IMG/VR virus record: IMGVR_UViG_3300008216_000004
Span: 1-42,809 of that record
Strand: one strand, 5' to 3'
From: a virus
DNA length: 42,809 bases
Below the pieces are notes generated by a model. It was not told the DNA's origin and did no database searches. It saw nothing but the letters and a program-made list of their open reading frames with translations. A program made the position numbers and the translations under genes. Positions 800-42,809 of this stretch are shown piece by piece (position 1 is the first letter of the stretch; the number at the start of each line of letters is the position of its first letter).

Positions 800-1295
800 C
801 TCCTCTTACCTTCCAGAATTTTCTAAATTTATAACCGTTTCTTGTGATTTCAGTACCTAGTTCAAAACCCATGTACTTTAACCATTTGATATGTACTTCA
901 TTTCGTACATCTATGATATTATATACGATCCTGTATCTTCGCAGTAGTTTAGCAAGCCATTCTTTACAATGCCTCAAGAACTCAAGCTTAATCTTTGAAA
1001 TATCATCACTCCCCAGCATCCAGACATATCCAGAATAAGGAATGTTTTCTATGTCTCCTGAACCAAATACAGCAATAGCCTTATCATCCTTCTTGTTCCA
1101 TACCGTATAGCATTCAATTGAATCCCTGACTCCCGAAACAAGGGCATTTTCTATATCCACCAGACCATGTGCCTTTAGTTCATTCAAGTCTGCATCCCTC
1201 AATCTGGGGGCTAGGCTCTTGGCATGATCTTCTGTAGATTTGAGGATGCAATTATCAGTATAATCTTTAACGAGAAGTTCTTCTTGAAGTACCAT
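792..1295 (-). CDS. gp13-like protein with GNAT-like fold (DUF2833-type)
   Basis: A 167-residue protein with the segments LAPRLRDADLNELKAHG, IAVFGSG, YVWMLGSDD and IKWLKYMGFELG. These match the acetyltransferase-like proteins that T7-like phages carry at the gene 13 position (DUF2833 type). In T7 gp13 is needed for assembly of the internal core. The ATG at 1295 lies inside the last 29 nt of the tail tubular B gene and has no clear Shine-Dalgarno, so translational coupling is likely. Whether it has acetyltransferase activity cannot be judged; an assembly role is inferred from position. Confidence 0.7.
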   Translation of the reverse strand: MVLQEELLVKDYTDNCILKSTEDHAKSLAPRLRDADLNELKAHGLVDIENALVSGVRDSIECYTVWNKKDDKAIAVFGSGDIENIPYSGYVWMLGSDDISKIKLEFLRHCKEWLAKLLRRYRIVYNIIDVRNEVHIKWLKYMGFELGTEITRNGYKFRKFWKVRGDV

Positions 1296-3993
1296 TTACG
1301 AAGCTTTCAAATTCAGCAGAGATCAGTTGGACAGGCAAATAAGTAGGATTTAAAATCTTTATCTCTACATCTTCAGCCCTTGAAAGAACTGGGAATTTAA
1401 AGACTCCATTCTTAACAATGTTGTTTTGTTGGAGATTTAAACCATTCGAGTCTCCCAGAGGGGTTCCTTTAAAGACAGAAGAGAAGGCATCCCTACCCTT
1501 GGGTTTAACCGTGATCTCGAAGTATCCAGTATTCTCATAAGATACCTTACCATTCCTTATCTGGTTCCTCATGTTCATTACATGGGTTCTTCCCCCCATT
1601 TTGGAATCCTCCCTCAATGCTGGAGAAGCCATTTCATATTCCATGTTGTATTCCAAGCCTACAAAGAACTCACTACCTGTGGTATTCCCTTCCAATGTGA
1701 ACCTGTCTTTATTGGAACCAACTGCTGTAGCTTCTATTTCTACATAATCCCCCAGAGGACTAAATCCTAATGCGGAGTTGGCAGTAGATGAATCTATTTT
1801 CTTTAGTACCTTTAGCTTACTTATATCTCCTCCCATTACATTTCTGGAAAGGGTATAAGTAGTGAGGTCTGTGGCTGAATCATACGCTTTAGTAGTGAAA
1901 TGTGAGGCTACTTCAGTATCCAAAACATGATCCAAATGAAAGCTTTTCTGGGGTGCTGGATTCTTATTATCAGCCAAATCCATTTTTAAGAATACTAAAT
2001 TCTTACTTACTCCACCAATGTCTTCAGAAGCATATATATATAATTCTGAATTGAGGATAGCTATATCTAATATTGTTAATTTATCGTGGAATAGGAATTC
2101 AAACCAAGAACTTTGAACCTTCTCCCTCCCCTTCCAATAGTATTTATAAATCTTTATTCTTTTAAATCCTACTTCTTCACCACAACTAGTGTCATCACAG
2201 ATATGAGTAAGACTTGTATCAAGGACAGCTATTACCTTCTCCTTTGAAGACCCTGCCAATACTATTTCAGTACCTCCATTCTCTATATAACTGGGGACAT
2301 GTTCTGTTATTTCCACCCCTTCATATTTATTATTATCATTGGTAATAAAGTATTCATAGATGCCTACATGCCCTCCCCTTTTGAACCCGAAATATATCTG
2401 TGCATCCAATGTGATTGGTTCGATATTAGTATCCATTTCATAGGAGGATTTATGCAGGATACTCACAGTCTTCGGAGTTAAACTATCCCCACCTTCCAAG
2501 GAAAATTGGGCATTTTCAGAGAATAGAATCAAACGATTATCAAAAGGTAATGCGTATTTAAGGTTGATAACCTTGTCATAAGCCACTCCAACATCTATTG
2601 GATCACTATCCTTTGAAACCCTGACAGTCTTCCTGAAGAAATTATAGTAATATCCCACCTCTGACATTATTACCTTGTCCTCACAAATGAAGCCAAGCCT
2701 ATCCTTAAAGAAGAATACATTACTAATTGCTTTGCCTACAAAAGAAGGAGTGGGATTGGTTTCTTCTGTACCCGCTATCCTAGCATCCCAAGTTTCATCG
2801 GTCATAGTGAACTCATTGAGTGCGGTACTCTTAATGACAAGCGGCATATTGTCCCCTAAAGCTTTCCTGACTTCAGATTCATTATCTGTATCAGTCATCC
2901 ACCCCAAGCATTCTGTCCAAGTCCCTTCAGCAACATCTCCGTCATCCAAAGATTCATCATTGGTTTGGAACTCTACAAAGTAATCATCCTCATCCCCATC
3001 CAGACTCCCATGAACCTTGACCCTGTATCCCTTTGGAGCCTTCAGGGGAAGATCAGTAATATGGTCTACAGCTTTAAAGACCAAACCCAATCCTGATCCA
3101 GCCAAACCATCATCAACTGATATACTGGCAATACCTCCAGTTTTCTTGAGAACAAGTAAATTGCCATATCTATCTACAGAGGTTAAGTCTCCAGCAGTAA
3201 TGGCTGTATTGGTGTATGCGTTTGTTACATATTTAAGTAACCCATCCCCACTATCATTATCAGAACCAGCATCAGGATCATCTTTTCCCCCACGAAGTCC
3301 TGCGGCAATAACTTCACTATCTGCTGATTTTGCCTGTTGCGTGTCAGTAGGCGTTAGAGATTTACCAGAAGTATATGTATAAGTGTTATCACCTATAGTA
3401 ATTTCATACTTCTTTTCGTAATCCCCCTGCTTTATAAATACCAAGGCTGTTTCATCCCCATCAACTCCTTCAGCATCCTTATATGTATTTACATTGGTGG
3501 ACGGAGTCCATGTTTCACCAGCCGCTTCACATTTTGCTTGAGTGTTGTGTTGGGTATCTGTGCAAGAACCAGCCATTACCACAACCTTGCTATCATTAAC
3601 AATGAAAGTGGTATCCAATGCTGTTGTTGCCCTTAAAGTTCCGCCAATTAAATATGCTGATTCAGCGGCCTCATAGCTGTCATTTATTTTGGCTTGAGTA
3701 CCATCCAGATTGAAAATCTTCATTTCATCATCCTTCACTATAATTGCATACTTTTCAGTAGCACTTCGCTTTATAGTGTGGATAAATCCAGAAAATATAT
3801 TCTCTGAATCTGTGTATCCCTCACCTACCACCACATCCTTAATGAAATGGGTACTGGGACGTTTAGTTAGTCCCTTCGTGGGGTCTGAATAGGCATTAAC
3901 CTGTGCTACTGCCTGTGTGGAATACTTTAAGCTTTCTGGCTGTTGCGATACCCCATTGATCAGGTTGGGAACTTTGTAGGTAATCAGGGGCAT
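1267..3993 (-). CDS. Tail tubular protein B (gp12-like nozzle)
   Basis: A 908-residue protein whose first 50 residues carry the gp12 signature: PNLINGVSQQPESLKYS, then QVNAYSDPTKGLTKRPSTHF. It forms the tail nozzle below the gp11 ring and binds the fibres. T7 gp12 is about 794 residues, so this one is longer. Part of the difference is an unusual insert at residues 141-165 with two cysteines (C144, C155). The start overlaps the stop of the gp11-like gene as TAATG, and the 3' end overlaps the gp13-like gene by 29 nt, so the three are one translational unit. Confidence 0.93.
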   Translation of the reverse strand: MPLITYKVPNLINGVSQQPESLKYSTQAVAQVNAYSDPTKGLTKRPSTHFIKDVVVGEGYTDSENIFSGFIHTIKRSATEKYAIIVKDDEMKIFNLDGTQAKINDSYEAAESAYLIGGTLRATTALDTTFIVNDSKVVVMAGSCTDTQHNTQAKCEAAGETWTPSTNVNTYKDAEGVDGDETALVFIKQGDYEKKYEITIGDNTYTYTSGKSLTPTDTQQAKSADSEVIAAGLRGGKDDPDAGSDNDSGDGLLKYVTNAYTNTAITAGDLTSVDRYGNLLVLKKTGGIASISVDDGLAGSGLGLVFKAVDHITDLPLKAPKGYRVKVHGSLDGDEDDYFVEFQTNDESLDDGDVAEGTWTECLGWMTDTDNESEVRKALGDNMPLVIKSTALNEFTMTDETWDARIAGTEETNPTPSFVGKAISNVFFFKDRLGFICEDKVIMSEVGYYYNFFRKTVRVSKDSDPIDVGVAYDKVINLKYALPFDNRLILFSENAQFSLEGGDSLTPKTVSILHKSSYEMDTNIEPITLDAQIYFGFKRGGHVGIYEYFITNDNNKYEGVEITEHVPSYIENGGTEIVLAGSSKEKVIAVLDTSLTHICDDTSCGEEVGFKRIKIYKYYWKGREKVQSSWFEFLFHDKLTILDIAILNSELYIYASEDIGGVSKNLVFLKMDLADNKNPAPQKSFHLDHVLDTEVASHFTTKAYDSATDLTTYTLSRNVMGGDISKLKVLKKIDSSTANSALGFSPLGDYVEIEATAVGSNKDRFTLEGNTTGSEFFVGLEYNMEYEMASPALREDSKMGGRTHVMNMRNQIRNGKVSYENTGYFEITVKPKGRDAFSSVFKGTPLGDSNGLNLQQNNIVKNGVFKFPVLSRAEDVEIKILNPTYLPVQLISAEFESFVNGTSRRTSR

Positions 3994-12400: not shown

Positions 12401-13876
12401 TTCTATAGACCCATTTCCCAGCACAGAGGTTGAAGAAGTTGTAGCCCTGTAAACGGAAAGATCAATATCATTAGCTGTTTCATCCTGTATAATTATACTT
12501 GTATCCCCCATTGTGAACCAAGCCTCAAGATCAGAAGCAAAACTTGTGGTGGATAATTTCTTTCCTTCTGCAATATCGGATATTTGTGATGCACTTAATT
12601 CTGTAGACCAAATGGCAAAATCATCCATCCTGCCGTCTAAATAACTACCAGAATCCTCATTAACATGCTGCCGGCCAAGAATTGGATTTAGAGAGGATTC
12701 ATAATTGGATAGAACAGGAGTTCCAAAGTTACTAGTTAGAGTTGATCCTGTAGCAACTCCATCTACATAGAAGACAGGAACCCCACTTGAATTAACAGTT
12801 ACAGCCACATGATGCCAACCTGTACCCGCATCCTGAAACGGTTGTGTTGAGGATAGGTATGATTTCTGTTGCGCCGAAGTTATATATAATGCAAATCCTA
12901 ATTTACCTGAAGTGGATGAAGTATTTGATCCAGCGTGGGATAGCCGTATGAAAGGCGCACCACCACTAGATGTTGGGGCTGTAGAGAATAAAAAATTAGA
13001 TTCTCCACCAGAGGGTCTTCCATCCGTGAACATCACCCACATACTTATTGAAAATCCAGATTGGAATACGCTTTCATAAGTATCAGAAAGTTCCACATAA
13101 TCATTATCTCCATCAAAGGTTATATAAGCAGTTCCTACTGGAGCCGTACCTGTTGTCGTCTGGGTTATCCCATAACCTATTGCATCATTACTATCAATTT
13201 CATTTAAAAGAGGAACTTCCGAAGCAACCTTTCCTGTAGCCGACATACTAGCTGACACACTCAAATTAGATTCAGCCAAATGTGATCTCTTTATTTCAGC
13301 TTCAGAGGTCATCCCCATTGCCATAGACAAAGAAGACTCTCCCAATCTTTCACCAGAGATACCTGTAGCTGTTAAATTGATTCCAATAACCAAGCTGGAT
13401 TCTCCCTGTATCCGAAGTTTAAGTGTCGGGGTGGAAACCATTCCAATTGCAAGAGTTAATTCCCCAACAGCCTCATGTGTTGTGATCATTGTCGGGGTAG
13501 CAACCATCCCGATAGAGAGATTTAAATCAGTTTCTCCTGTTGCACCCACCTCACCAGTTGCAACCATCCCGATTGAAACCTTGAAGTCATCGGACTGTGC
13601 TAATTTAAACCCACCTGAAATTGCTGTAGCATCCAGCGAGATACCAGCACTTAAATCAGATGAACCCTCACGTAAGAATCCAGAAGCGTTTGCCGATATA
13701 TTAAAATCAATTAAATGAAAGGAGATTGCATTGTACGTTTGTGGCCCACTTACCTCACGTACCAAATACCATAGCTCTTCATCTTCTGAATTAGCTGGGC
13801 TAGTTAAAATCTTATTGGGAGAGGCTATCCCAGCAAGTGTTCTTCTAGTCTTGTTGGTTCTACGAACAGAGGGCAT
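9428..13876 (-). CDS. Five-LamG-domain virion protein, probable fibre or adhesin
   Basis: A 1482-residue protein. Residues about 70-215 hold six or seven repeats of roughly 25 residues around L-L-IGM-AT (for example DLNLSIGMVATPT, ELTLAIGMVSTPT); more copies of this repeat lie at 700-765. Five concanavalin A-like LamG domains (Laminin_G_3 type) follow at about 250-456, 489-695, 768-978, 1015-1203 and 1240-1482, each with FDG-DYI near its start, W-H-VAV in the middle and DEF-A-W-S--L-S near its end. Three units end with W-RMEEG-GT--ADSS. Such domains bind glycans or cell surface polymers. The gene lies between the replication and head genes, apart from the gp17-like fibre. Confidence 0.85.
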   Translation of the reverse strand: MPSVRRTNKTRRTLAGIASPNKILTSPANSEDEELWYLVREVSGPQTYNAISFHLIDFNISANASGFLREGSSDLSAGISLDATAISGGFKLAQSDDFKVSIGMVATGEVGATGETDLNLSIGMVATPTMITTHEAVGELTLAIGMVSTPTLKLRIQGESSLVIGINLTATGISGERLGESSLSMAMGMTSEAEIKRSHLAESNLSVSASMSATGKVASEVPLLNEIDSNDAIGYGITQTTTGTAPVGTAYITFDGDNDYVELSDTYESVFQSGFSISMWVMFTDGRPSGGESNFLFSTAPTSSGGAPFIRLSHAGSNTSSTSGKLGFALYITSAQQKSYLSSTQPFQDAGTGWHHVAVTVNSSGVPVFYVDGVATGSTLTSNFGTPVLSNYESSLNPILGRQHVNEDSGSYLDGRMDDFAIWSTELSASQISDIAEGKKLSTTSFASDLEAWFTMGDTSIIIQDETANDIDLSVYRATTSSTSVLGNGSIEFGGHGTGNWIEANSNFQTTLRSGWSISMWVKLDYKELNEALFATYDGAAGQDYYSFQIVHSGIYNSGELLFQAKWAAVGGADPLISRYHTNSYFSEGENSWKHIVLTVSSSAVPTFYVNGTTTTTRTSENTSLTSISNYNGTQNLILGSFVVGGSSGTIEGFMDDVSLWNTVLTGTQVSALYNSGSGTSLSGSSNLKAWWKMEVDAKFGEADLVMATGMTAEATTSTTHSGASDLSVAFTVGATAIEGSIENGVADLDVTFTLEAEAIVGSTWENEYSVSCDGTDDYIDLNSNFSTVFDSSFSVAFWINLPEGQPTGSGHSTTSNSNIFGLSNSGNAHRFFGLIGRGGDSDAGKLRVYYKANGNQVQARSASAFFASGATGWVHVVITVEEANDGIKMYKNGSAVSVDEVDSTMSSVTMSYFAGNVDMTFGASNRGGTPNYEVDADFDEVAIFSAALSSSQVSTIYNNASVYDLDGHSNLEGWWRMEEGSGTSVADSSSNSNTATLVNGPTFSTNAPIVYENGYSLEFDGTNDHLSTSLVTNTHNLKNGFSASLWVKLDDVSTTQDFFGRYGNSTGRFYFGITGSNVRAAIGTSFDTSTLSHGMSTGTWYHVAYTFSGGSSGTFTYYLNGSSVGTISFTWTSDSGSYEPMHIGGLKNGSNLHQNPTNGKLDEFALYNSALSASDITAIYNSGAPVNQGLDSNLVAYWRMEENTGTTVADSSSNSNTATLTNGPTWSADVPLEAVDNTYSYLCDGADEYITLWDGSSGFDPESIGTNAFTFSGWIKLNTTTDNYSSIFFMGDSGNSHNYILLQYHPVEEGIKFLCRKGNAGGAYVATDDLVIDRWYHVACTRSGTTAKIYLDGVLVDEGTNTEYGVDVASGEGGTDDDGRMQLGAFGNSLSHHDGHLDECAFWDVALPSSAISQIYNAGRPIDLNTSAGLYTQSSNLTGWWRMEEGTGTSIADSSTGYSNAGTIQNSEGDGSGNFSTDIPT

Positions 13877-24051: not shown

Positions 24052-24939
24052 TTAGTTCGCCAAGCAGAATTGCTTCAAGTCATTCATAACTCCACGCTGG
24101 AAGTCACGATTCCGACCCAGTTCCATACTGTTGAAACGATTCTCATCAGCACTCCGTGAACTGGTTTGACGGTAAACAGCATGATGCTGTTGGTACTCCG
24201 TGATAGCGTTGAGCAAGTCCCAACAGCTTTCACCCTTGTTACCAAGTCCAGTACGATACAGTTGACGGACAGTAATTCTTGTATTCTTGCTTCGGGAACT
24301 TTCACCCTTGAACCAACGGTTCAGGTGAGTGTCAATATCCTTGTCCTTCATTTCTGTACGCTGGAAGGTTTCAAACAGTTCCCGATTGTATTCAATCGTT
24401 CGCTTGATTCCAGTTATGTCAGCAACAGCATCAACCAAACGATCATGCTGGTTAACGGTATGCCTGACTCTGGCTCTTTGTCCGTCCTCCATAGCTGTCA
24501 TCCCATTTGAACAAACCAATCTCAACCAGCCCATTGTGAAGGTGGATGGCATGGTTCCATCAAAGCTAGTCCAGAAGTTTAACTGGAAGGATAGCCTGTC
24601 CCCAACTTTAGGATTCACATTGATGGTTTCAGGGATTTCAGCACGGATGAACAGTTTGCGTCCATTGTCCAGAAATCCAGCTTCCTTGAAGTCTGCTCCA
24701 AGATGTTGCCGAACATCATCAACATAACTAAAAGCTTCAATCGGTTGCAGAAGCTTGTAGCTGTCATTGTTGATGCAGAGCGGTTTTCCGTTACCGTCCA
24801 CGATAGCCTTGTATCCATCCATAGCCACTTGATCAGGCAGGAAACTCCAGACTGGTTTAGTGGTGTAGGGCTTGTCAGCCCCGATAGCTTCAAGAGCCTC
24901 GTTTACGTTTTTAGTGTCTGATATGTCTAATAATTTCAT
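24052..24939 (-). CDS. DUF932 phage/plasmid-like protein
   Basis: A 295-residue protein. KLLQPIEAFSYVDDV, GRKLFIRAEIPE, GDRLSFQLNFWTSFDGTMP and RLVCSNGMTA are the core segments of the DUF932 family found on phages and plasmids, whose biochemical role is not settled. Its ATG overlaps the stop of the preceding gene (TAATG), with AAAGGAC upstream. The coding sequence is less AT-rich than its neighbours. In this phage it is the largest early gene before RNA polymerase. Confidence 0.8.
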   Translation of the reverse strand: MKLLDISDTKNVNEALEAIGADKPYTTKPVWSFLPDQVAMDGYKAIVDGNGKPLCINNDSYKLLQPIEAFSYVDDVRQHLGADFKEAGFLDNGRKLFIRAEIPETINVNPKVGDRLSFQLNFWTSFDGTMPSTFTMGWLRLVCSNGMTAMEDGQRARVRHTVNQHDRLVDAVADITGIKRTIEYNRELFETFQRTEMKDKDIDTHLNRWFKGESSRSKNTRITVRQLYRTGLGNKGESCWDLLNAITEYQQHHAVYRQTSSRSADENRFNSMELGRNRDFQRGVMNDLKQFCLAN

Positions 24940-26986: not shown

Positions 26987-28711
26987 ATGAATAAACCAAT
27001 CATAAACCTAGTATGGAATAGAGTTAACAAATTCTATTCTTTAATTCAGATGGTAAAGATGCTATTGCAAACTGCCATCCTATCTAATAAGTCAATACCT
27101 ACGTTTGGTAGCAATGGAATAGCTAATACTATAAATCCATTACCGCTAGCCACTACGGTTAGACAGTTAGTCTATAATCTCAATAGTCTGACAGGTCTAT
27201 TCGGTAGACAGGTCAAAATAGTTAATGAGATTGAAATGTTATCTATATTAGATAGAACCTCTACTAAGTGGAAGTTGTTTGATAATAATAACAATATACA
27301 ATGTACACATATTGACTTACATCGCTCTCCAACCAGATATATACATCTATTAGCAGATTCGCCATCTGCAAGGAAACATCTATATATGAAACAAGGAATC
27401 TTCCTGTTTTATGATGATACCTTGAAAGGTGAAGGATGTAACAATGGTGAACAGGTCTACATCTCTTTAATGAGAAGGATACCTACAGTAGATACAGGTT
27501 ATAGCAGTTCCATTGCATTACCTGCCATTTGCAATGCGGAAAGCGATTATAATGGAACTAGATTAGGAAACCTAATTGATGTAGTGAAAACTATTCCTAA
27601 TGGTGAATATAGGTGGAGAAAAGATTGTACACTAGTAGACCATATAGATGTATATGATTATCATCACGGCTGGATTAGTGCAGATGAATCTATCTACTGT
27701 AGGGATATACATGACTACGTTCATCAGGATAATGCTAACTATTGCGATATAGACGACAATTATTATTATGATACAGCTAGGATGCCACAATCCGATCCTA
27801 TTAGAAGATGGAATGCAGGTATTCCCCTAGATTCAAAATTCCTATGTTTAAAAAAGAAGAGGAATATAGGTCTAGAAGAGTTTACAGCCACATCTAATCC
27901 ATTGAGCCATAGATTGTATGTATTAGAGATCGAATCCATGTTTGATAGCAATGCAGACAGAACAGAGTTTGTTCACGCAATGAATAACTCTTCAATTAAT
28001 GCGTACTGTAAACAAGATGGTAGTTTATCAGATAGTAGAGGATGCGAAGTTGCAACTGCACCCTACAATTTTGAAGCATCTAAAAAAATAGCTGTAGACG
28101 TTCTTTCTATAATACATAGATACAATGGTAAATGCTATGTGCAAGGGACAGGTCTACACATTCATCCTAATAAGAATGTGACTAGATTAGAGTTTTCCAA
28201 GATAGCGCAAATAGTATGTAGAGAGAATAGAGAGTACTGTCTGCAATTAGGAGAACGTCAAATATCATATAGCTGTCTGGAATTCACTAATGATAATAGG
28301 CTAGTAGACAGACATAACTATCCAAATAGATATGATGCTTGGAATGTTAGAACACATTCTTACGAGAATAGAATGTTTGGTGGAACAGATACGAATGCGG
28401 GAATCATTAAAGCTATAGAGACAGTAGAGTCTATGTGTGCATGGTCTAGGGAAACACCTATAATAGATATAATGTGTTATGGTAAAGAAGGAGGATTTGA
28501 TACCATACGTCACCCTAATCCTCATAAAGCATTAGAATCATGGGAAAGGTATGTGTCTAATCATATGGAGGTCTATCCAAACCTGTATGCATTCCTAGCA
28601 ACTAATAAGATGTTAAAGGAAGACCATGTAGGAAGAAATAACATCCTACCAAGTAAACCAAGCAGGAAACTATTCTTAAAGAAGCATATCCCAATCTTGA
28701 ACCTAGCATAA
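26987..28711 (+). CDS. Amidoligase-type COOH-NH2 ligase with long N-terminal extension
   Basis: A 574-residue protein. Residues about 309-490 match the amidoligase (Amidoligase_2, glutamine-synthetase-like) family: YVLEIES (E314, E316), KQDGSLSDSRGCEVAT (D344, E354), VQGTGLHIHPNK (H391, H393) and SYENRMFGGTDTN (E460, R462). Members are predicted to use ATP to form amide bonds, usually with glutamate or peptides. Residues 1-300 have no recognised family; a Cys/His/Asp-rich stretch (about 222-262, with YCRDIHDYVHQD and YCDIDDNYYYD) may bind metal. It is on the opposite strand to almost all other genes, AT- and CTAG-rich, and 20 nt ahead of a class II amidotransferase. The ribosome site at ATG 26987 is weak, so an internal start (Met23 or Met26) is possible. 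Confidence 0.85.
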   Translation: MNKPIINLVWNRVNKFYSLIQMVKMLLQTAILSNKSIPTFGSNGIANTINPLPLATTVRQLVYNLNSLTGLFGRQVKIVNEIEMLSILDRTSTKWKLFDNNNNIQCTHIDLHRSPTRYIHLLADSPSARKHLYMKQGIFLFYDDTLKGEGCNNGEQVYISLMRRIPTVDTGYSSSIALPAICNAESDYNGTRLGNLIDVVKTIPNGEYRWRKDCTLVDHIDVYDYHHGWISADESIYCRDIHDYVHQDNANYCDIDDNYYYDTARMPQSDPIRRWNAGIPLDSKFLCLKKKRNIGLEEFTATSNPLSHRLYVLEIESMFDSNADRTEFVHAMNNSSINAYCKQDGSLSDSRGCEVATAPYNFEASKKIAVDVLSIIHRYNGKCYVQGTGLHIHPNKNVTRLEFSKIAQIVCRENREYCLQLGERQISYSCLEFTNDNRLVDRHNYPNRYDAWNVRTHSYENRMFGGTDTNAGIIKAIETVESMCAWSRETPIIDIMCYGKEGGFDTIRHPNPHKALESWERYVSNHMEVYPNLYAFLATNKMLKEDHVGRNNILPSKPSRKLFLKKHIPILNLA

Positions 28712-33064: not shown

Positions 33065-34393
33065 TTACCAAACTATACCTATTACACGGAATGACCAGTT
33101 GGCAGGTGTTAATTCACGTCTTCCTTGATCTTCGGAGGTAGCGTCTGTAACAGTAGCAAACTGATCCTTGAATGCCCACTTGACATAAATGTTTGTATCA
33201 TCCGCCCAACAAGTCCGTAAGAATACCCCAGCTTGGTGTCCCCCACTCCCGCCTGAATAGTAATCAGATATATCATGTCCTATTCCAGTTATAACATCAT
33301 CCACGCTATAACCATATTCTGTTGTGGTACATTTCAACTGGAAGAGTATTTCATCAGGTGCTGATCCTAACCCGTGGGCTACACTATAATTATCAAATGT
33401 TCCAGAAGAGTTGTAATCATAGTATGAAGCATTGTTACAAGTAACATAGGAACCCTTAAATGCTGTCCCGCTTGCCGCACCAATGGTAACGGTAACATCC
33501 TCCCCTGAATTGGTAGCTGTAACCCCCGAACCTACAAAATTTATAGAATCTGCACTAGTTGTCTTGTCTGTTCCCTCATCTTTGACCGTAAGATTGCTGG
33601 GTTTATTTGCATCACTTGTATTATCTACATTCCCAAGTCCAACCTGATCCTTGGTTACGCTGTGGGGATTCAAACTACTTCCTGTGTGTCCTACAATCCC
33701 CTCATCTACATCTGATATTTCAGCCCAAGTAGTTGAATCAGTCTTCTTATAGATTTTATTGGTAGTGGAATTAAAGAAGAAATCCCCTGTTACTCCTTGT
33801 TCGGAACTGGGTGCTGATGAGCCATTTAACCATTGTGTACCTGCCGCTCCATCTGCTCCATCCGATCCGTCAGCACCGTCCGCTCCATCTGATCCATCTG
33901 CTCCGTCAGCACCTGCTGGGCCAGTTTCACTTTCAAAAGTGGTATCCACATATGCCTTGGTAACAGCATCTGTATCTTCTGTAGGGGTCGCAACATTAGT
34001 GACCTTTAATCCCCCCATGTTCCATACTTTAGTACCAACAGTTTTAAGGGTCTGTATTAATGTATTGCTGATCCTGTGATAAAGTTCTTGGATCAGGTTA
34101 CGGTTATGTTCATAGGATAAATCCAATGCCGCTTCTGTTACCCTTGAAGTCTTTTGGAAATCCACCAGAGCCGTATCTACATCAGAATCTCTTTTAATTA
34201 CTATTAGATCACCGTTAACAGGAGCAGTAGTGAAGGTTAAGACTTCTGTAGCAGTATTTATAGTATAATCAGTAGTTACCGTTTTTTCGACTCCAGCAAC
34301 CTCAACGACTAGGAATTCATCCTTTATCAATGGGAATGCGTAGGTGAAATTAACTTCCGTTCCATCTCCTATAAATTCTGTATATGTTGGCAT
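33065..34393 (-). CDS. Tail fibre protein (gp17-like N-terminus, collagen-like stem)
   Basis: A 442-residue protein. Residues 1-150 are the T7 fibre attachment domain (TEFIGDGTEVNFTYAFPLIK, RDSDVDTALVDF, LDLSYEHNRNLIQELYHR). A collagen-like run of GAD/GSD triplets lies at about 158-186, then the GDFFFNSTTNKIYKK motif usual after such stems, and a C-terminal receptor-binding part (about 300-442) unlike T7. GAGGAT precedes the ATG. Being short, it is probably helped by the five-LamG protein in host recognition. Confidence 0.88.
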   Translation of the reverse strand: MPTYTEFIGDGTEVNFTYAFPLIKDEFLVVEVAGVEKTVTTDYTINTATEVLTFTTAPVNGDLIVIKRDSDVDTALVDFQKTSRVTEAALDLSYEHNRNLIQELYHRISNTLIQTLKTVGTKVWNMGGLKVTNVATPTEDTDAVTKAYVDTTFESETGPAGADGADGSDGADGADGSDGADGAAGTQWLNGSSAPSSEQGVTGDFFFNSTTNKIYKKTDSTTWAEISDVDEGIVGHTGSSLNPHSVTKDQVGLGNVDNTSDANKPSNLTVKDEGTDKTTSADSINFVGSGVTATNSGEDVTVTIGAASGTAFKGSYVTCNNASYYDYNSSGTFDNYSVAHGLGSAPDEILFQLKCTTTEYGYSVDDVITGIGHDISDYYSGGSGGHQAGVFLRTCWADDTNIYVKWAFKDQFATVTDATSEDQGRRELTPANWSFRVIGIVW

Positions 34394-34412: not shown

Positions 34413-37400
34413 TTATGGTGTTCTAATTCTCCCATTAAATAGGTCTTTGCTATTATGCCAATCTATAATTTGGTTAATAACCCTACTTTGGAACTCTTCA
34501 TTCTTTTGTTCTTTGGCTTGTCCTGTATGTTTTGTCGCTTCCATATATGGTTTTTCCATATATTTATATTCTTTTAACCAAGGAAAGGATCGTTCCACTT
34601 GATCCAAGGCTCTTGACCTATATGTTTCAAATATCTTATTAACCATCCGTACCCTGAAATCGGATACACCTGTTCCTTTCGTCTGTTTTGTGGAAATACC
34701 TGCTAATCTTTGATATTCCTGCGTTCCGAAGAGGGTATAAAGAGCTTTCCGCAATGTAGGTGATCCTTTTAGGGGTCGAAATGTTGGGTCACTCATAATA
34801 GTTTTCCCAAGGGCAGTATTCAACTTGTCCAAATCACCCTCCCTTAAACGGATACTGCTGGTAATGTCATGCCAAACCTCGTAGGGGGCTGTATTATGGC
34901 CTAACTTCGCAAGTTCCCCAACATTCATGGTGACTTCCTGACCATCTACAGTATCAACCGTTACGTTGGGCCAAGGTTTTCCATTAAGGGAATCCAGATT
35001 GAGATTAACACTTCTACCATAGCGTTCAGGATTGGTTTGAAGTAATTTCAATCCTTTCGGATCGAAGGTGTATATTTCATAAAGTTCTCTTTGTACAGGA
35101 TCAGGCTTAACTTTCCTGATTGAGAGAGGTAGGAGCCATTCCAATAAACTAGCATTTACAGTAACTGGTTCAGAGAGTGCATTCCTATAAACTGGATTTT
35201 TACTGGCTAATGAAGGGATGGAGTCCTTAAAGGTCTGTAGCATTTCCTTATGTAATCCCTCCCATTCCCTATTTCGTTCCCTAACAAGGGGGTCTACAAG
35301 TGCTGTTTTTCTAAAGAGGGCTGGGATAAATCCTTTTGCAATCGGTTGGAAGAATCCTTTATGGAATCGTATTGCGGCTTCAGTCCCTCCCTCTAAATCA
35401 GTCAATCCAAGTCTTTGTTTCTCGTATTCGGTGTACATTCCAGAATCCGAAACTGTCTTGAGAATTTGGAGGTAATTTCTATTGGTTATTAGATTGTATG
35501 TGGATATTGCGAAAGCTTCCTTGAACACTAACAATTTTTGAAACAATCCATCCCTTACCTTTGGGTCTTGAATCATTTGCAATTGATTATGTATGTCCCT
35601 CATGTCGGCATTAAAGGCCAGAATTGCGAACCAAGGATCACCTCTATTATAAGTGTAGGATTTGATTGGGGTTCCATCCTTGTCTAATGTGATGACAGAA
35701 TATGGTTGATACCCTAAATTTTTCTTAATTTCAGCACGAATTTTATTATTGGCTACCAAACTCCCAGTAATAAAGACGCTTTGACCATTTGGCCCTTTTT
35801 CATGGTTATTTACTAATTGATGAGCGGCATACCATAACCCTGCTCCTGCCACCATTTTTCCACGAAGTTCTGCGGCAACCTCTCTATCAGCCGCTTTCAT
35901 AGCCACGCTATATTGATTTTGTCCAAAAACTGCATTCAATTTGGGGAAGCTCGCCGCTGGAAATGTCTTATGCAATTCCTTCATTAAATTTACTGGAGTC
36001 CTTACGAAAGGTACTGCCAGTTGTAATAAAGAAGAACCTACTCCACCTCCCTGCCTTGCTTTTTGAATATGAGCCGCCCAACCTTCAATGAAATACATCC
36101 ATGTTTGAGGGTCTTTCAGTCCAGTTTCTTTGGCGATTTGAGCATGATATTTAGAAAGTTCGTCTGGAAGACTTAAAGCATTTTGGAAAGGGCCAGATTC
36201 TCCGAATTTTAAAGAGGCTTCCCTTAATGGAGAGAATTTTTCCAATTCCATTTCAAATTCATAATTAAAAGCTTTTTGGAAGTCTTCTTTATTCATCTTC
36301 GCAAAAGCCGCCTGATTTATATCGCCAGTTTTAGCATCCCTAACCTCAAACTTTTCCAATGTTTTTAGGAATGTTTCCTGTTGTATCTCGCCTTCTGTCT
36401 TGTACCTTCCGTCTGGCGTTAGGACTTTTAATGTTTGATCCGCATCGTATTGCCTGAAAACTTCCTTCATCTGCTTACGTGTCAGATTGTTAATGGGTAA
36501 ATCCTTCAGGGCTGGACTGTTTATTCCAGTTGCTTCACCTACGGTGGCATTTCCAGATAACTTTGATTTTGAAAGAATATCATCAAATTGTTGACCATGC
36601 TTGGCAGACAATACGTTCCTTGCCCCCCATTGTTTGAAAATCTCATCAATCCACATCATAGTCTTGGCAGGAGCATTGACACCTTGCCTAATGCCATTGG
36701 CTAACCCCCCCAATGCTGAAAATTTTCCCTCGAAAGGCAGGTCTACTCTTTTCCCCATTTCTTCAATTACACTCTTACTGGACAATTGCCCCCTCATTGT
36801 TTTTGCCGCAGTCAGGGCTATAGCATTGATACTCCCCCATTTTTGACCGTTGTAGTAACCAAAGGTCAGTTGGTTTTGTAGGACACGCCCATATAGATTA
36901 CTTGTATCATTATCCTTGGCTATACGTGACCTGATGGCACTTATACTTTCAGGGGAATGTCTCCAGTATTTAGCCCAACCAAGATCAACGTATCCTAATC
37001 CTTCATTTATTTTACCACCTAATGCCCTCGTTCCTGATTGCCAGTAAGAGTTCATAAAGTTTCCAATAAATGTAATAGCCTGTGTAGGGGGTGCGGACAG
37101 AATGGAATTAACATAGTATTCAACTGTACCCCTCATAAATCTATCTATATACCCACCCATTCTCGCTCTTCCTGTAGCCGACCTTGTGAGTTCCTTGAGG
37201 AATGCTGTTGGATCATCTAGTGCGTCCAATACCTGCATTTGCTTTATGAATGCCGCACGATCCCCCCTGTTCTTGAGATATTGCCTAGCTATTTCAGGAG
37301 TTAATTCCCCATTACCATGAAGTTCCTTTAGGAATGCCTGATCCTCCCTTAACACAGTTCCCTTCGTTAAGTTGACAACCTCCATCAATTCCGCTCTTCC

Positions 37401-40400
37401 ATCTTTTCCAAGCAGTTTATTCTTCTGCATGGTCATGCCACGGTGATGCCATTCATATCGAAGGTTTCTGGCAACACGAAGAGCATCAATAGCTTGATCT
37501 CCAGCATTTGCCAGTTGAGCCGCTATTTTTACATTATCAAGATTATCTACACTCTTTTCCAATTCATGTCGGAACCTGTTCATAAAGGCCACGGCAATAT
37601 GGTCTACAACTCCCTGTCTCATCATAAGCTCTTGAGACATTTGACCAGCACCCACCAAGGTTGCATCAGTTTCCAATGCTCCTGCTCCATGTAACAAATT
37701 GTAGTATTCCAAGGAGTATTTCCCATAAGCGTTCATACCTTTCGAGTCAGACCCACCAAAAGGTTTGAATATAAAGTCTTTAGGATTCTTTGAGGCTAGA
37801 TCACCAAGGCCCAGCATAATAGCCCTTAAATCTGAATGATCCCCAATTTCATTGAAGTTGACAGCATTCTCAACCCATTCTTCAAATTCGCCTTCTTTAA
37901 GTTGCTTCACCCAATTTTTAAGAAATTCCGCTCTCTCCTTTTCAGGCTTTAGAGAGAATCCCTTGAAAGGCTCCATTGGCCCAGCAAGTGTTTCTACTGA
38001 ATGTTTCCCTTGTTCACCAACATCAGCCTTCGGTGCTTTCCCAGCCTTAATTTCAGGAACTCCTTCTCTACCATATTTTATTATGTCCTCTATTTTGTGG
38101 GGGGTTGTTCCCTTGGCTTTAGCAATCTTTCCTTGAATCTCATCCCAAGAATCCAGATAAACTTTATCAACCTTTGACCCTGCATTTACTTTTTTATTTA
38201 AAACTCCTTCATCCACCAATACCATTTTCTTTGTTCCTTTACGCATCCCCCAACTAGAAGGACGCATAAAATCTCCATGCAAAACGTCATAATTCAAAAT
38301 GTCTACAAGACCAATTTTTTCTAATTCTTTCTGTAGTTCTGGAGTGTGATTTTCCCAATCTTTAGCTGTAAATTTTTGAAAGGGTTTTAATTTTTTATTA
38401 ACCTCTTTGTCATTTCTTGGAACATACTCTACAACAATGTAGTTATCCCCCTTTTCGTATAGTTTTGCGATATGCTCCCCAAGCATCTGATCCTCTCCCC
38501 AACTATGAGCGTCATTTTGTTCTAATCCTTTGGGATTTTTTGCCACCTTTACTACTAAATCTTCCGTTCGGTATCCTTGTCTGCTAGAACCTCCACCCGA
38601 TAACTTCTTCAAGTCTTTTAAGTCTACTTTATTTTGTATTACTTTTTCAGTAGTCTCTTCATTGAATAGTTCTTTTACGATCCTCTCACCTCTTGCTTTT
38701 TGAGCCTTTACAGTCCCTTTATTGTGAGGATTAACCCACTCTTTTTCAGCTAGATTTTTACGATCTAAAGCTTCTTGTTCTTTTCCAGCCTTAACCTTTG
38801 CTTTATATTCTGCTAGCGATTGATTATAATCCTTCTGTTCTTGGGCTTCAGTTTTATATTTCTTACTCCCAATTTCCTTTTTGAAGGTCTTGGTGGTAGT
38901 GTCTAAAATATTTTCCCTATCCTTAACGCCCTTAATAACTTTAGTCTGTAAATTCTGTAAATCTTTAATGTATTTATTATGATCCCTCCTTTTCAAAACC
39001 CCTGTTACGACTGCACTTTGAGCTATTTCCAAATCTTCTTTTATCAGGAACCTGATTTCATTATAAAGATTCAATTCATCCCCTACAGCCCGAATATCAG
39101 TCAGTAATCCTTGAAGCTTGCCATTCTCTACATTATCAAAAATTCTTGTGTATTCAAATTCTGGAACTTCCTTACCTTTGGTTAGCTCTATGAATTGGCT
39201 AATGAGATTGCTGTTGGTTGATCTGAAAGAGGCTATTAACTCCTTGGCTTCATCTGTATCTTTTTGGAGTTTTTCCCTGTATGCCAACCGTGTTTGATCG
39301 TTGGGATCAATATCTTTAAGTTCCTTCTCCCACTCAACAATCTTACCCTTCAATCCTTTATGGATTTTAGCTTCTGTAATGAATGCCAAGGCATCCTTTG
39401 AATCATTAAACAGATACTTTGAGAAGCCGTGGAAACCTCCACCAAGAACCAAACCAAAAACAGAACTGATCCCAACTTCAGTAGGATTCAAACCAACTTG
39501 CCCTCTCAATTCTGCCCAATTTCTACTAGTACCCTTACCCCATTGATACATGAGATTATGCCCCCCACCCATCAATCCTCCTTGAGAAGCTGACCATAGT
39601 AATTCACGGTATTTGACTCCCTTTAAGAAACCTTTTGGAGCTTGGGCGAAAAAGACAGGTGCAAGAAGAGTATCAGCCAGAAGTTCCATCTGATTGATTT
39701 CATCCTGTTCACCCATTTCTATTCTTAAATTCTGGGCAAATTTAGAGGAATAGTATCCTGCTGGCATATTGATTGCGGCATAAGCTGATAGCCAACCTAT
39801 CGCAGTCCAAGGATGTCGAGCCGCCCATGCCTGTGCTGATCCAGTAGCCAAACTCCCTGTAACTATGTTTGTCCCCATTGGAACACCCATCTGTATTGCC
39901 AAGGATTGGAGATATTGAGGCATTGCGGCACTTGGATCAAATTTCGTTGCCTTCTCCATATAAAAGAAATCTGGAATTACTCCATCAACAGGGGTAGTCC
40001 ATCTCTTTAATGTATAAGAATTTCCCTCTGCATCCTTAAATCCTCCGTAACCACTTGTATTTATTTTATTGTAGGATTCTCCTTTTTCATTTCCGAATAT
40101 ATCCCTGTTTCCCATTACATCTTCAGGCAATACATACACCAATCCATCTGTACCCAATAGATAGTTCCATCCCTCTTCTAAATTCCCTTTACCATCAAAA
40201 ATATTCTTCCCTATTTTATCGTAGGATTCTCCTCCTTGAGTTCCTTCGTATGCTTTTACTTCAGATAAATCTGTTTCAATTTTACCACCTATCCCTGCTA
40301 ATTTGCTCAATTCTCCGATTGAACTTAAAATTTGATTTCTTAAAAAAGTATCAGGTTTCCTGACCTCCTCCCCTTCCTTCCTTTTTTCCTTGGCTATTGC

Positions 40401-40958
40401 CTCCTCTTCTTCATCTATTTTCTTATCTTCTTCAGCTAAAGCAGTTTGTAATTCAGCAAGCAATTCCTTTACGGATTTTATAATTTGAGGATCATCAGAT
40501 GGATTTTGTCCATGTTTAAGTCTATATGTTTCAAATGCGGATTTAGCTTTTTCGTATGCTTTAGTCCCCTTCACTAGCCTCTCTACCGCTTTAGTCCCAT
40601 CAGTGCCTGTTAAAGCTTCCAAAAGTGGATTCTCAAGTGCTTTATTAACCATCTGATTCCATTCTGGAGGACGGAGTTCATTAGTGATGGTTCGTGTTCT
40701 GTTCTGATTGGCTTGATCACCTGTAATTAAACCGCTTGATTCCAGCATCCCAAGGAATGAACTGATTTGAGGTTTAACGGTCATATTCTCATTGTGATAA
40801 CTCTCCTCAACTGGTCTCTTCTTTCTTCCCCACGTAAGTTCTGGGGGTAATGGAGGGAGTCCCATATTAGAAACCTCTTTAGCATTACGAAGAACTTCTT
40901 CGTCTACTTCATTGGGGACATTTTCAGGATCAACTTGATTATTTTTTGGAATAGCCAT
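34413..40958 (-). CDS. Giant internal virion protein (gp16-like) with embedded kinase-like domain
   Basis: A 2181-residue protein at the gp16 position; T7 gp16 is 1318 residues. Residues 150-210 are charged and helical; hydrophobic stretches lie at about 375-405, 425-445 and 455-510. Residues about 785-925 resemble the kinase-like domain of phage polyvalent proteins: GGGSSRQGY, LVVKVAKNPKGLEQND (K804), YIVVEYVP, VLHGDFMRPSSWG (D896) and KMVLVDEGVL (D916). The C-terminal half has long amphipathic helices and VRTPVNLMKELHK-type segments seen in other giant podovirus ejection proteins. No N-terminal lytic transglycosylase, present in T7 gp16, is seen. The ATG has no Shine-Dalgarno and follows gp15 by 12 nt. 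Confidence 0.85.
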   Translation of the reverse strand: MAIPKNNQVDPENVPNEVDEEVLRNAKEVSNMGLPPLPPELTWGRKKRPVEESYHNENMTVKPQISSFLGMLESSGLITGDQANQNRTRTITNELRPPEWNQMVNKALENPLLEALTGTDGTKAVERLVKGTKAYEKAKSAFETYRLKHGQNPSDDPQIIKSVKELLAELQTALAEEDKKIDEEEEAIAKEKRKEGEEVRKPDTFLRNQILSSIGELSKLAGIGGKIETDLSEVKAYEGTQGGESYDKIGKNIFDGKGNLEEGWNYLLGTDGLVYVLPEDVMGNRDIFGNEKGESYNKINTSGYGGFKDAEGNSYTLKRWTTPVDGVIPDFFYMEKATKFDPSAAMPQYLQSLAIQMGVPMGTNIVTGSLATGSAQAWAARHPWTAIGWLSAYAAINMPAGYYSSKFAQNLRIEMGEQDEINQMELLADTLLAPVFFAQAPKGFLKGVKYRELLWSASQGGLMGGGHNLMYQWGKGTSRNWAELRGQVGLNPTEVGISSVFGLVLGGGFHGFSKYLFNDSKDALAFITEAKIHKGLKGKIVEWEKELKDIDPNDQTRLAYREKLQKDTDEAKELIASFRSTNSNLISQFIELTKGKEVPEFEYTRIFDNVENGKLQGLLTDIRAVGDELNLYNEIRFLIKEDLEIAQSAVVTGVLKRRDHNKYIKDLQNLQTKVIKGVKDRENILDTTTKTFKKEIGSKKYKTEAQEQKDYNQSLAEYKAKVKAGKEQEALDRKNLAEKEWVNPHNKGTVKAQKARGERIVKELFNEETTEKVIQNKVDLKDLKKLSGGGSSRQGYRTEDLVVKVAKNPKGLEQNDAHSWGEDQMLGEHIAKLYEKGDNYIVVEYVPRNDKEVNKKLKPFQKFTAKDWENHTPELQKELEKIGLVDILNYDVLHGDFMRPSSWGMRKGTKKMVLVDEGVLNKKVNAGSKVDKVYLDSWDEIQGKIAKAKGTTPHKIEDIIKYGREGVPEIKAGKAPKADVGEQGKHSVETLAGPMEPFKGFSLKPEKERAEFLKNWVKQLKEGEFEEWVENAVNFNEIGDHSDLRAIMLGLGDLASKNPKDFIFKPFGGSDSKGMNAYGKYSLEYYNLLHGAGALETDATLVGAGQMSQELMMRQGVVDHIAVAFMNRFRHELEKSVDNLDNVKIAAQLANAGDQAIDALRVARNLRYEWHHRGMTMQKNKLLGKDGRAELMEVVNLTKGTVLREDQAFLKELHGNGELTPEIARQYLKNRGDRAAFIKQMQVLDALDDPTAFLKELTRSATGRARMGGYIDRFMRGTVEYYVNSILSAPPTQAITFIGNFMNSYWQSGTRALGGKINEGLGYVDLGWAKYWRHSPESISAIRSRIAKDNDTSNLYGRVLQNQLTFGYYNGQKWGSINAIALTAAKTMRGQLSSKSVIEEMGKRVDLPFEGKFSALGGLANGIRQGVNAPAKTMMWIDEIFKQWGARNVLSAKHGQQFDDILSKSKLSGNATVGEATGINSPALKDLPINNLTRKQMKEVFRQYDADQTLKVLTPDGRYKTEGEIQQETFLKTLEKFEVRDAKTGDINQAAFAKMNKEDFQKAFNYEFEMELEKFSPLREASLKFGESGPFQNALSLPDELSKYHAQIAKETGLKDPQTWMYFIEGWAAHIQKARQGGGVGSSLLQLAVPFVRTPVNLMKELHKTFPAASFPKLNAVFGQNQYSVAMKAADREVAAELRGKMVAGAGLWYAAHQLVNNHEKGPNGQSVFITGSLVANNKIRAEIKKNLGYQPYSVITLDKDGTPIKSYTYNRGDPWFAILAFNADMRDIHNQLQMIQDPKVRDGLFQKLLVFKEAFAISTYNLITNRNYLQILKTVSDSGMYTEYEKQRLGLTDLEGGTEAAIRFHKGFFQPIAKGFIPALFRKTALVDPLVRERNREWEGLHKEMLQTFKDSIPSLASKNPVYRNALSEPVTVNASLLEWLLPLSIRKVKPDPVQRELYEIYTFDPKGLKLLQTNPERYGRSVNLNLDSLNGKPWPNVTVDTVDGQEVTMNVGELAKLGHNTAPYEVWHDITSSIRLREGDLDKLNTALGKTIMSDPTFRPLKGSPTLRKALYTLFGTQEYQRLAGISTKQTKGTGVSDFRVRMVNKIFETYRSRALDQVERSFPWLKEYKYMEKPYMEATKHTGQAKEQKNEEFQSRVINQIIDWHNSKDLFNGRIRTP

Positions 40959-40970
40959 TTTAAAAGTTCT

Positions 40971-42809
40971 TTAGTTTCCCAATTGTTCTATAGCTAGTTT
41001 TAAAGCTGTCTTTTGCGAGTCACTCAGCTTTTCAAAAAACTCTGTTTTTTTATAGGCAATGTTCCTATCAATAATGAAACCCAGAAATTGTTTTTGTTGT
41101 GTAGAAAAAACGAGGGTTTCAGTTTGTTTTCCATCTTTTATCTCGTATTTGGATGGGATTACAAGTTGCCTTTGCAGTACCCCTAACGCATTAAGCATTT
41201 CCCGATCCCCTATGGCATTAACATCGTCCCAAAGTTCATTTATAATTTTATCTCTAACTTTGTCTTCATGTTCCTTCCACGATCCAGATGTATCCCCTGC
41301 TTCTAAATTTCCAATATACAGTTCTTGTTCTTCAAGTAACCACTTTTCAATTTTTTTATTTACATAAATAGTAGCCAAACCCTGCACTTTCCGCATTTGG
41401 TTCAAAGTAATCTCATTATTTTTGCCTTTACCGAATACCTCATGCAAGGTTTCCCCAAAATCAAAATATGGCCCAGCAGTTTTAGCTATAGTGGCTGGAA
41501 CAAACCCTTGAGGTTGTTGTTCAAAATAATTATAAAGGGAATCAATTTGTTCTTTATTTCGGCGGTCAGTTATAAAATCATTGAAACTTTTATTGGTAAC
41601 GTCCGTTGTTGTTATAGCATCCCATTGCCCATTAGTGATTACTCCAGCCTGATGTGCTTCTCGCAGGATTTTAAAATCCTCACCACTTAAAGGCGACCCC
41701 TCTTCACTCCGAATAAAAATATCCTCGTAATGTAACCAAAGGTCTTCTTCAACTACTGAAATATTGTCTGATTTATAGTCTTTAAAATTATCCCGAATCC
41801 ATGCCGCTCCTACATCCCAATCAATATTGAAATTAGGATCATCTTCCAGCACCCCCAATAATTCAAAAAGTTGCCCTTTAGAGGCTCCAGTTGTTCCATA
41901 GGTTCGCATAGCCAATATGGATAAACCTCTCGTACTTCTTTCCTGCGCCGCTACTTCGGCTTTATCAAAAGCAGTATAAGCATCTTGACGTAGGGTATCG
42001 GTTATTTTCCCAGTACCAAATATAACTCCATTATCTAATTTTAGAGCCAATAAATCTTCAAAAATACTTTTGGCTTTATCTGCTCCACCATAATCACGGC
42101 TGGAAGCTACTGTACTTATTAGATGAGGGATGACCCCATGCTCTAAAAAGAACTCCTCATTCCCTTGGAAATATCCAGCAGGGTCTTGTAACCATTGGGA
42201 AAGAAGATACTTTGCATCTGGTTCCCGATGAGCATCCCCTTGGGTTGAAATATATTGATCAAAAAGATCAACCCCTACCTGTGACCAAGCGTGTTTACCC
42301 CTTTCAGTATAATCATCTATAGATTTCTTTGTCAGTATCTCCTCAATGTGACTTTCAGATTCATTCAGTAGGGTATTCAAGGTGTTTAGTGCATAACTAC
42401 TACCCCTGATAACTTTATATTCATCATTATCAGCTAATTTTTCTCTACTTATTTCCCTAATTTCTTCAAAGGATAGCCCACTTCCCATTGCTTCATTCAA
42501 ATCCTCTTTATAACTCCCTGCCAAACGGAAAGCTCTGGCATCAAGTGAACCAATTCTGAAAGCTTGAGATTGCCAAGGCTCCATCTTTCCTCCCATTATA
42601 AGTTTCCTTATAACGCCTAGACTTTTCTTATTCTTTGTTTGGAGTCCCTTGTAAACTTTTTCGTATTGTTCGGGATCAGTTTCATATAGATTTTTTCCAT
42701 ATTCCCTGAATTTTTGAAAGCTCTTGTTTCTATTCGCCGCATCTGACGCAAAGTTCTGCTGTAATGTTTGAGACAATCTACCCAGACTCTGTGAAGTTCC
42801 ACTCCACCA
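40971..42809 (-). CDS. gp15-like internal virion protein, main part (continues at 1-225)
   Basis: This is the bulk of the 646-residue protein whose true ATG lies at 225 across the circular join; a TTG at 42776 is only an apparent start. It is charged and helical throughout, with SQAFRIGSLDARAFRLAGSYKEDLNE and repeated Trp-containing helices, as in podovirus core proteins. In T7, gp15 and gp16 form the tube through the periplasm during ejection. The last 123 bases repeat the window start. Confidence 0.8.
   Translation of the reverse strand, partial: WWSGTSQSLGRLSQTLQQNFASDAANRNKSFQKFREYGKNLYETDPEQYEKVYKGLQTKNKKSLGVIRKLIMGGKMEPWQSQAFRIGSLDARAFRLAGSYKEDLNEAMGSGLSFEEIREISREKLADNDEYKVIRGSSYALNTLNTLLNESESHIEEILTKKSIDDYTERGKHAWSQVGVDLFDQYISTQGDAHREPDAKYLLSQWLQDPAGYFQGNEEFFLEHGVIPHLISTVASSRDYGGADKAKSIFEDLLALKLDNGVIFGTGKITDTLRQDAYTAFDKAEVAAQERSTRGLSILAMRTYGTTGASKGQLFELLGVLEDDPNFNIDWDVGAAWIRDNFKDYKSDNISVVEEDLWLHYEDIFIRSEEGSPLSGEDFKILREAHQAGVITNGQWDAITTTDVTNKSFNDFITDRRNKEQIDSLYNYFEQQPQGFVPATIAKTAGPYFDFGETLHEVFGKGKNNEITLNQMRKVQGLATIYVNKKIEKWLLEEQELYIGNLEAGDTSGSWKEHEDKVRDKIINELWDDVNAIGDREMLNALGVLQRQLVIPSKYEIKDGKQTETLVFSTQQKQFLGFIIDRNIAYKKTEFFEKLSDSQKTALKLAIEQLGN
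42687..42809. repeat. Exact 123-bp copy of the window start (circular overlap)
   Basis: Bases 42687-42809 are identical to 1-123. Since the repeat lies inside a gp15-like gene that reads through in frame when the ends are joined, this is an assembly overlap of a circular contig rather than a biological terminal repeat. Confidence 0.92.

What the first reader, a model, noticed from the sequence alone, without database searches (positions are those of the whole stretch)
38184..38606. Kinase-like domain inside the ejected gp16-like protein
Residues about 785-925 read GGGSSRQGY, VVKVAKNPKG, VVEYVP, HGDFMRPSSWG, VLVDEG, which fits the nucleotide-binding lobe, catalytic loop and metal-binding Asp of a protein-kinase or aminoglycoside-kinase fold. 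T7 gp16 has no such domain. As gp16 is injected with the DNA, a kinase would be among the first phage activities in the cell. Kinase-like domains are described in phage polyvalent proteins, so a role against host defences is plausible.
Basis: partly seen in the sequence, partly recalled or inferred. Interest (0 to 1): 0.65.

Follow-up and report, generated by a model that had tools for sequence, protein, structure and literature searches.

The report
Kinase-like cargo in phage ejection protein
A T7-like marine-type phage carries a small, real protein-kinase-like domain built into the large protein that such phages normally eject into the host with their DNA, so it may phosphorylate something in the cell at the very start of infection, although one expected catalytic residue is changed and no activity has been shown.

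Summary
Residues 775-925 of a 2181-aa gp16-like ejection protein (window 34413-40958, minus strand) contain the motifs named, at the coordinates given. They belong to a widespread phage protein family of unknown function, phrog_4301. A profile built from 59 relatives without the window scores it 69 bits, against at most 7.7 for 1000 shuffles. K804, D896 and D916 are invariant in 60 relatives and the window. AlphaFold gives a kinase-type fold (family model pLDDT 92), and the structure matches are almost all kinases (protein kinases and aminoglycoside phosphotransferases). The C-lobe is truncated just after the DxG motif.

First, a Glu present in 60/60 relatives, probably the helix-C Glu, is His818 here, so catalysis is uncertain. 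Second, none of 122 complete gp16-like ORFs I collected has this domain. Third, other long gp16 N-termini carry different effector-type domains (ART-PolyVal, RelA/SpoT, ddrB-ParB, RadC, methyltransferase), and phrog_4301 itself is fused elsewhere to ART-PolyVal and GNAT. The best reading is an effector-type cargo module on the ejection protein. Kinase activity, host target and any anti-defence role remain unproven.

The parts
34413..40958 (-). gp16-like (internal virion protein D) ejection protein, 2181 aa
   Evidence: ORF. Profile of 68 gp16-like proteins matches residues 930-2151, E 1.4e-65. tblastn to 'internal virion protein D' of pelagiphages and roseophages. Gene order as in HTVC041P and CRP-804.
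38184..38636 (-). Kinase-like domain, residues 775-925, divergent relative of phrog_4301
   Evidence: HMM of relatives without the window: 69.4 bits. 39 IMG/VR loci by tblastn E<=1e-3. AlphaFold and Foldseek.
38571..38597 (-). GGGSSRQGY, residues 788-796, glycine-rich loop (G790 and R793 invariant)
38526..38555 (-). VVKVAKNPKG, residues 802-811, strand 3 with ATP-contacting Lys804 and family signature KxAxNxKGxxQN
   Evidence: K804, A806, N808, K810, G811, Q814, N815 invariant in 61/61
38505..38507 (-). His818 (codon CAT) at the position that is Glu in 60/60 relatives, probable helix-C Glu
38247..38279 (-). HGDFMRPSSWG, residues 894-904, catalytic loop with Asp896
   Evidence: D896 and G904 invariant in 61/61
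38205..38222 (-). VLVDEG, residues 913-918, DFG-like metal-binding Asp916
   Evidence: D916 and G918 invariant in 61/61
34506..38171 (-). gp16 core homologous to other T7-like ejection proteins, residues ~930-2151
   Evidence: alignment with four cultured phages
40971..42776 (-). gp15-like gene, cut by the window end; 646 aa in the identical contig L001
   Evidence: position as in HTVC041P and CRP-804
33065..34393 (-). tail fibre gene downstream of gp16, T7-type N-terminal domain
   Evidence: PF03906 E 1.9e-19
1267..3993 (-). tail tubular protein B-like gene, upstream of gp15/gp16 across the circular join
   Evidence: phrog_457 tail protein E 1.3e-171; contiguous in L001

Best explanation
The domain is a small kinase-fold module (N-lobe, short helical part, catalytic loop and DxG, no large C-lobe) of the phage family phrog_4301. 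It was inserted upstream of the conserved ejectosome core of a gp16-type protein as an effector-like cargo. The protein is packaged in the virion core and ejected with the DNA. The domain most likely binds ATP in the host cytoplasm and phosphorylates a host (or phage) target at the onset of infection. Shown here: homology, fold prediction, conserved catalytic residues, and location in a gp16-like protein at the syntenic position. Inferred: packaging and ejection (from T7), cytoplasmic exposure, catalysis, target and benefit.
For: Motifs and statistics. Model of the domain with order beta-beta-beta-alphaC-beta-beta-helices-catalytic loop-beta-beta-DxG. Family model pLDDT 91.7, pTM 0.86. Foldseek top matches are kinase-fold proteins: APH(2''), MPS1, CK2, ULK1 (VIA-align). 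Family profile against PDB sequences returns kinases only, best E 1.4e-4 to 2.6e-4. gp16 core E 1.4e-65 and syntenic gene order. Cargo context: phrog_4301 relatives fused to ART-PolyVal and GNAT. Other gp16 N-termini carry ART-PolyVal (5 of 42), ddrB-ParB + RelA_SpoT + RadC, or a methyltransferase. T7 gp16 is ejected and its C-terminal part is cytoplasmic (review PMC8954989).
Against: Glu at 818 (60/60 relatives) is His here and the codon differs at two bases, so this is not a one-base error. No direct Pfam or PHROGs hit for the window domain itself. The window model is only moderately confident (pLDDT 73.5). VIA Z scores are mostly 6-8, which alone is not conclusive. No other gp16 with this domain was found. 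Membrane topology is not resolved: only one weak hydrophobic stretch, 488-513.
Confidence: 0.55

Rival explanations
1. Pseudokinase: the domain keeps the fold and perhaps nucleotide binding but no longer transfers phosphate. It serves as a binding module or structural spacer in the enlarged gp16.
For: Loss of an otherwise invariant Glu (60/60) to His818 and the unusual Glu813 in place of Ala (95% of the family).
Against: G790, R793, K804, N808, K810, Q814, N815, D896, G904, D916 and G918 are all retained, which is more than relaxed selection would be expected to leave at about 25-30% overall identity.
Confidence: 0.27
2. Small-molecule kinase of the aminoglycoside/choline-kinase type that phosphorylates a metabolite or nucleotide rather than a protein.
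For: The best Foldseek rows include APH(2'')-type enzymes as well as protein kinases.
Against: The large C-terminal substrate lobe of APH enzymes is missing: the domain ends just after DxG. Family profile hits in PDB sequences are protein kinases.
Confidence: 0.1
3. The kinase-like domain acts before ejection: it modifies phage proteins in the producer cell (assembly, scaffolding, core stability) and is passive after injection.
For: gp16 is made late with the virion proteins (established T7 biology). Nothing here shows that the domain reaches the next cell's cytoplasm.
Against: Other cargo-type domains in the same region of related gp16s (ART-PolyVal, RelA/SpoT, ddrB-ParB) fit delivered effectors better.
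Confidence: 0.06
4. Assembly chimera: the domain-coding stretch was wrongly joined into gp16.
For: No second genome covers residues 278-2181; the identical contig L001 stops at residue 277.
Against: One uninterrupted 2181-codon ORF, composition of the domain close to the flanks (GC 0.355 against 0.34-0.40), and a circularly closed genome.
Confidence: 0.02

Closest known systems
phrog_4301 (phage family, unknown function; e.g. XacN1 ORF170, RM378 p120)
   Same: Glycine-rich GxGSSR, VxKxAxNxKGxxQN, catalytic Asp, W/Y/F-G, DxG; full-length alignment over residues 781-920
   Different: Family members are mostly stand-alone proteins of about 190-270 aa or the C-terminus of small fusions; here the domain is internal in a 2181-aa ejection protein and the Glu at 818 is His
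Kinase-PolyVal (PF18762) of polyvalent proteins
   Same: Kinase lacking the C-terminal subdomain, in injected multidomain proteins (paper PMC5512222)
   Different: No HMM match; known mainly from Verrucomicrobia-Chlamydia and Bacteroidetes elements
T7 gp16 / internal virion protein D
   Same: C-terminal core, gene order
   Different: 2181 aa against 1318 aa for T7 and 1205-1243 aa in the cultured relatives; no transglycosylase hit; extra N-terminal half with the kinase-like domain
T7 gp0.7 protein kinase
   Same: Phage kinase thought to act early on host proteins (cited in PMC5512222)
   Different: Early-expressed separate protein, not part of the virion; no sequence comparison was made here
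T4 Alt (virion-packaged ADP-ribosyltransferase)
   Same: Works like it in principle: protein-modifying enzyme delivered with the DNA (PMC5512222)
   Different: Different chemistry, fold and carrier protein
Minimal/atypical kinases such as PRPK (Bud32)
   Same: Kinase fold with reduced C-lobe; among the VIA-align rows
   Different: Distant structural match only, about 20% identity

Membership tests
Protein-kinase-like (PKL) fold | N-lobe sheet with helix C and following catalytic segment | tested here: met
   AlphaFold models; Foldseek rows are kinase-fold proteins
Protein-kinase-like (PKL) fold | Lys of strand 3 and glycine-rich loop | tested here: met
   G790, R793, K804 invariant in 61/61
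Protein-kinase-like (PKL) fold | Helix-C Glu pairing with the Lys | tested here: not met
   His818 where 60/60 relatives have Glu; geometry could not be inspected
Protein-kinase-like (PKL) fold | Catalytic-loop Asp and metal-binding Asp (DxG) | tested here: met
   D896 and D916 invariant in 61/61
Protein-kinase-like (PKL) fold | Phosphotransfer activity | not testable with these tools
   needs biochemistry
phrog_4301 | Sequence homology over the whole domain | tested here: met
   HMM of 59 relatives 69.4 bits; 60 of the 61 sequences in A4 hit phrog_4301, all but the window
phrog_4301 | Direct match to the PHROGs profile | tested here: not met
   no phrog_4301 row for the window domain; it is divergent
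Kinase-PolyVal PF18762 | Match to the Pfam profile | tested here: not met
Kinase-PolyVal PF18762 | Loss of the C-terminal subdomain | tested here: met
   domain ends just after DxG in both models
Kinase-PolyVal PF18762 | Special Glu before strand 2, Gln in last N-lobe strand, insert between His and Asp (PMC5512222) | not tested
   reference alignment not available here
T7 gp16-like ejection protein | Homologous C-terminal core | tested here: met
   E 1.4e-65 over residues 930-2151
T7 gp16-like ejection protein | Gene order tail tube B - small - small - gp15 - gp16 - tail fibre | tested here: met
T7 gp16-like ejection protein | N-terminal transglycosylase domain | tested here: not met
   no Pfam hit; not universal in gp16 homologues (PMC8954989)
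Polyvalent protein | Several unrelated enzymatic domains in one injected protein | tested here: inconclusive
   only the kinase-like domain is recognisable; other gp16s do carry several

The most novel reading that the evidence does not exclude
The N-terminal half of T7-type gp16 is an exchangeable effector bay. In different phages it carries a kinase, an ADP-ribosyltransferase, a RelA/SpoT synthetase-like domain, ParB/RadC domains or a methyltransferase, all delivered into the cell by the DNA ejectosome itself before any phage gene is expressed.
Probability: 0.5. Interest if true: 0.75.

Novelty: new variant of a known kind. Interest (0 to 1): 0.55.

Why it matters
If the domain is active, this phage phosphorylates host molecules with a protein that arrives with its DNA, earlier than T7's own gp0.7 kinase, which must first be expressed. 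More generally, it suggests that the T7-type ejectosome protein gp16 doubles as a carrier of interchangeable effector domains. Polyvalent proteins are known for that role, but the papers found here do not describe it for T7 gp16 homologues. It makes a direct test possible: delete or inactivate a mapped domain in a virion protein and ask what the first minutes of infection lose.

Tried and rejected
Pfam on the window domain gave only a weak Methyltransf_10 match (E 0.077), rejected because the kinase alignment covers the same residues with invariant motifs. The top single-sequence PDB hit, AcrVIA1 (E 0.28), is chance level. The Bacillus phage Bp8p gp006 weak tblastn hit lacks the kinase motifs and was dropped. 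No relative was found in plasmids or with the domain's own peptides in IMG/VR. A search for PF18762 in the own genome was negative, and nothing rang in the controls either, so it is uninformative alone. A search for the domain in 153 other gp16-bearing loci was negative. Composition gave no sign of a chimera. Paper searches for kinase or ADP-ribosyltransferase domains in internal virion proteins found nothing relevant. Hydropathy did not give clear membrane segments, so the topology argument was not used as evidence. Searches failed on input format.

Full report
Observation. The finding's coordinates and motifs are right. ORF 34413-40958 on the minus strand encodes 2181 aa, with the motifs at residues 788-918 and K804, D896 and D916 as stated. 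The genome is a T7-like podovirus: it has a T7-type RNA polymerase, primase-helicase, DNA polymerase A, connector, capsid, terminase and T7 tail-fibre domain. It is a closed circle: the window ends share a 123-bp direct repeat, and contig L001 runs across the join with 100% identity.

Which protein carries it. A profile of 68 gp16-like proteins matches residues 930-2151 with E 1.4e-65 and does not match the first 930 residues convincingly. The gene order tail tube B, two small genes, gp15-like, gp16-like, tail fibre equals that of cultured pelagiphages and roseophages, whose gene here is annotated 'internal virion protein D'. Their proteins are about 1205-1243 aa. Among 122 complete gp16-like ORFs longer than 700 aa collected from IMG/VR the median is 1255 aa and only one is longer than the window's. 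A review gives 609-1337 aa for the gp16s it compares (PMC8954989). The window protein therefore has roughly 900 extra residues, mainly N-terminal to the core, and the kinase-like domain sits directly before the core.

What the domain is. Weak tblastn hits led to XacN1 ORF170 and RM378 p120, both members of phrog_4301, a phage family of unknown function. An alignment of these with the window recovered 95 and then 39 IMG/VR relatives, the latter by tblastn with the window domain itself. In 60 non-identical relatives plus the window, G790, R793, K804, A806, N808, K810, G811, Q814, N815, D896, G904, D916 and G918 never vary. An HMM without the window scores the domain 69.4 bits; the best of 1000 shuffles scores 7.7. 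One limit of that test: the search patterns that recovered the relatives were partly derived from the window's own motif, so the invariance of the KGxxQN stretch is in part selected for; the D896, G904, D916 and G918 positions were not in the patterns. The PHROGs profile itself does not reach the window domain, so it is a divergent member.

Fold. The AlphaFold model of the window domain has pLDDT 73.5, higher over the core; the model of relative L087 has 91.7 and pTM 0.86. Both show strands 1-3, helix C, strands 4-5, a helical stretch, the catalytic loop, two strands and DxG, and stop soon after, so the large C-lobe is missing. The leading Foldseek rows are aminoglycoside phosphotransferases, MPS1, CK2 and ULK1; viral rows include several phage kinases and uncharacterised phage proteins. 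VIA-align Z values of 6-8 are moderate and would not suffice alone. Independently, a sequence profile of the family against PDB sequences returned twelve chains, all kinases. Fold, sequence profile and motif order agree.

The residue three after the invariant QN is Glu in 60/60 relatives and His818 in the window. By position it is the probable helix-C Glu that pairs with the strand-3 Lys; I could not inspect coordinates. The codon CAT differs from Glu codons at two positions. Activity may be reduced, altered or lost.

Context supporting a cargo role. phrog_4301 relatives are fused to ART-PolyVal (L094, E 4.8e-19), GNAT (L009, L045, L076) and, weakly, an amidoligase (L112). These are domain types of polyvalent proteins, predicted to be injected effectors (PMC5512222), except that the amidoligase was not checked against that paper. 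In the gp16 N-termini of other T7-like contigs Pfam finds ART-PolyVal in 5 of 42, ddrB-ParB plus RelA_SpoT plus RadC in L152, and a methyltransferase in L144. The ART of gp16 in L166 is closely related to the ART fused to the kinase-like domain in L094 (E 2.6e-18). None of the 153 gp16-bearing loci has the kinase-like domain. So the module type is shared, but this exact architecture was seen only once.

Mechanism. In T7, gp16 is ejected, its N-terminal part stays in the periplasmic tunnel and its C-terminal part reaches the cytoplasm (PMC8954989). The kinase-like domain adjoins the core, so cytoplasmic exposure is plausible but not shown. The most likely role is phosphorylation of a host target at entry. 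Anti-defence action is one possibility without direct evidence.

Verdict. The kinase-like fold and its location are well supported. Catalysis (somewhat better than even odds), delivery and target are inferred. It is a new variant of a known kind: a polyvalent-type effector domain carried by a T7-type ejection protein.

Noticed in passing
window 1-123 and 42687-42809: A 123-bp direct repeat at both ends; contig L001 crosses the join at 100% identity, so the window is a circularly closed genome and the gp15-like gene is split by the window ends.
   Followed up: yes
L152 3640-10389: A 2250-aa gp16-like ORF with RelA_SpoT, ddrB-ParB and RadC domains upstream of the gp16 core: a possible ejected (p)ppGpp synthetase-like domain.
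   Followed up: partly
L144 4147-10200: A 2018-aa gp16-like ORF with a methyltransferase domain at residues 767-857.
   Followed up: partly
L166 ORF from base 3, residues 228-332: An ART domain in a gp16-like protein, closely related to the ART fused to the kinase-like domain in L094; ART-PolyVal matched 5 of 42 gp16 N-termini.
   Followed up: partly
L094 7461-8531; L009 684-2516; L045 1297-3567: phrog_4301 kinase-like domains fused C-terminally to ART-PolyVal or GNAT (and ParB-looking) segments.
   Followed up: partly
window 9428-13876 (-): A 1482-aa protein with five Laminin-G/concanavalin-A-like repeats and sialidase/pentraxin-like matches, possibly an adhesin or head/tail decoration.
   Followed up: no
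window 26987-28711 (+): A 574-aa plus-strand ORF without any Pfam match, next to a 295-aa ORF weakly like class-II glutamine amidotransferases, both against the direction of nearly all other genes.
   Followed up: no
window 24052-24939 (-): A DUF932 protein (E 6.9e-30), a domain of unknown function.
   Followed up: no
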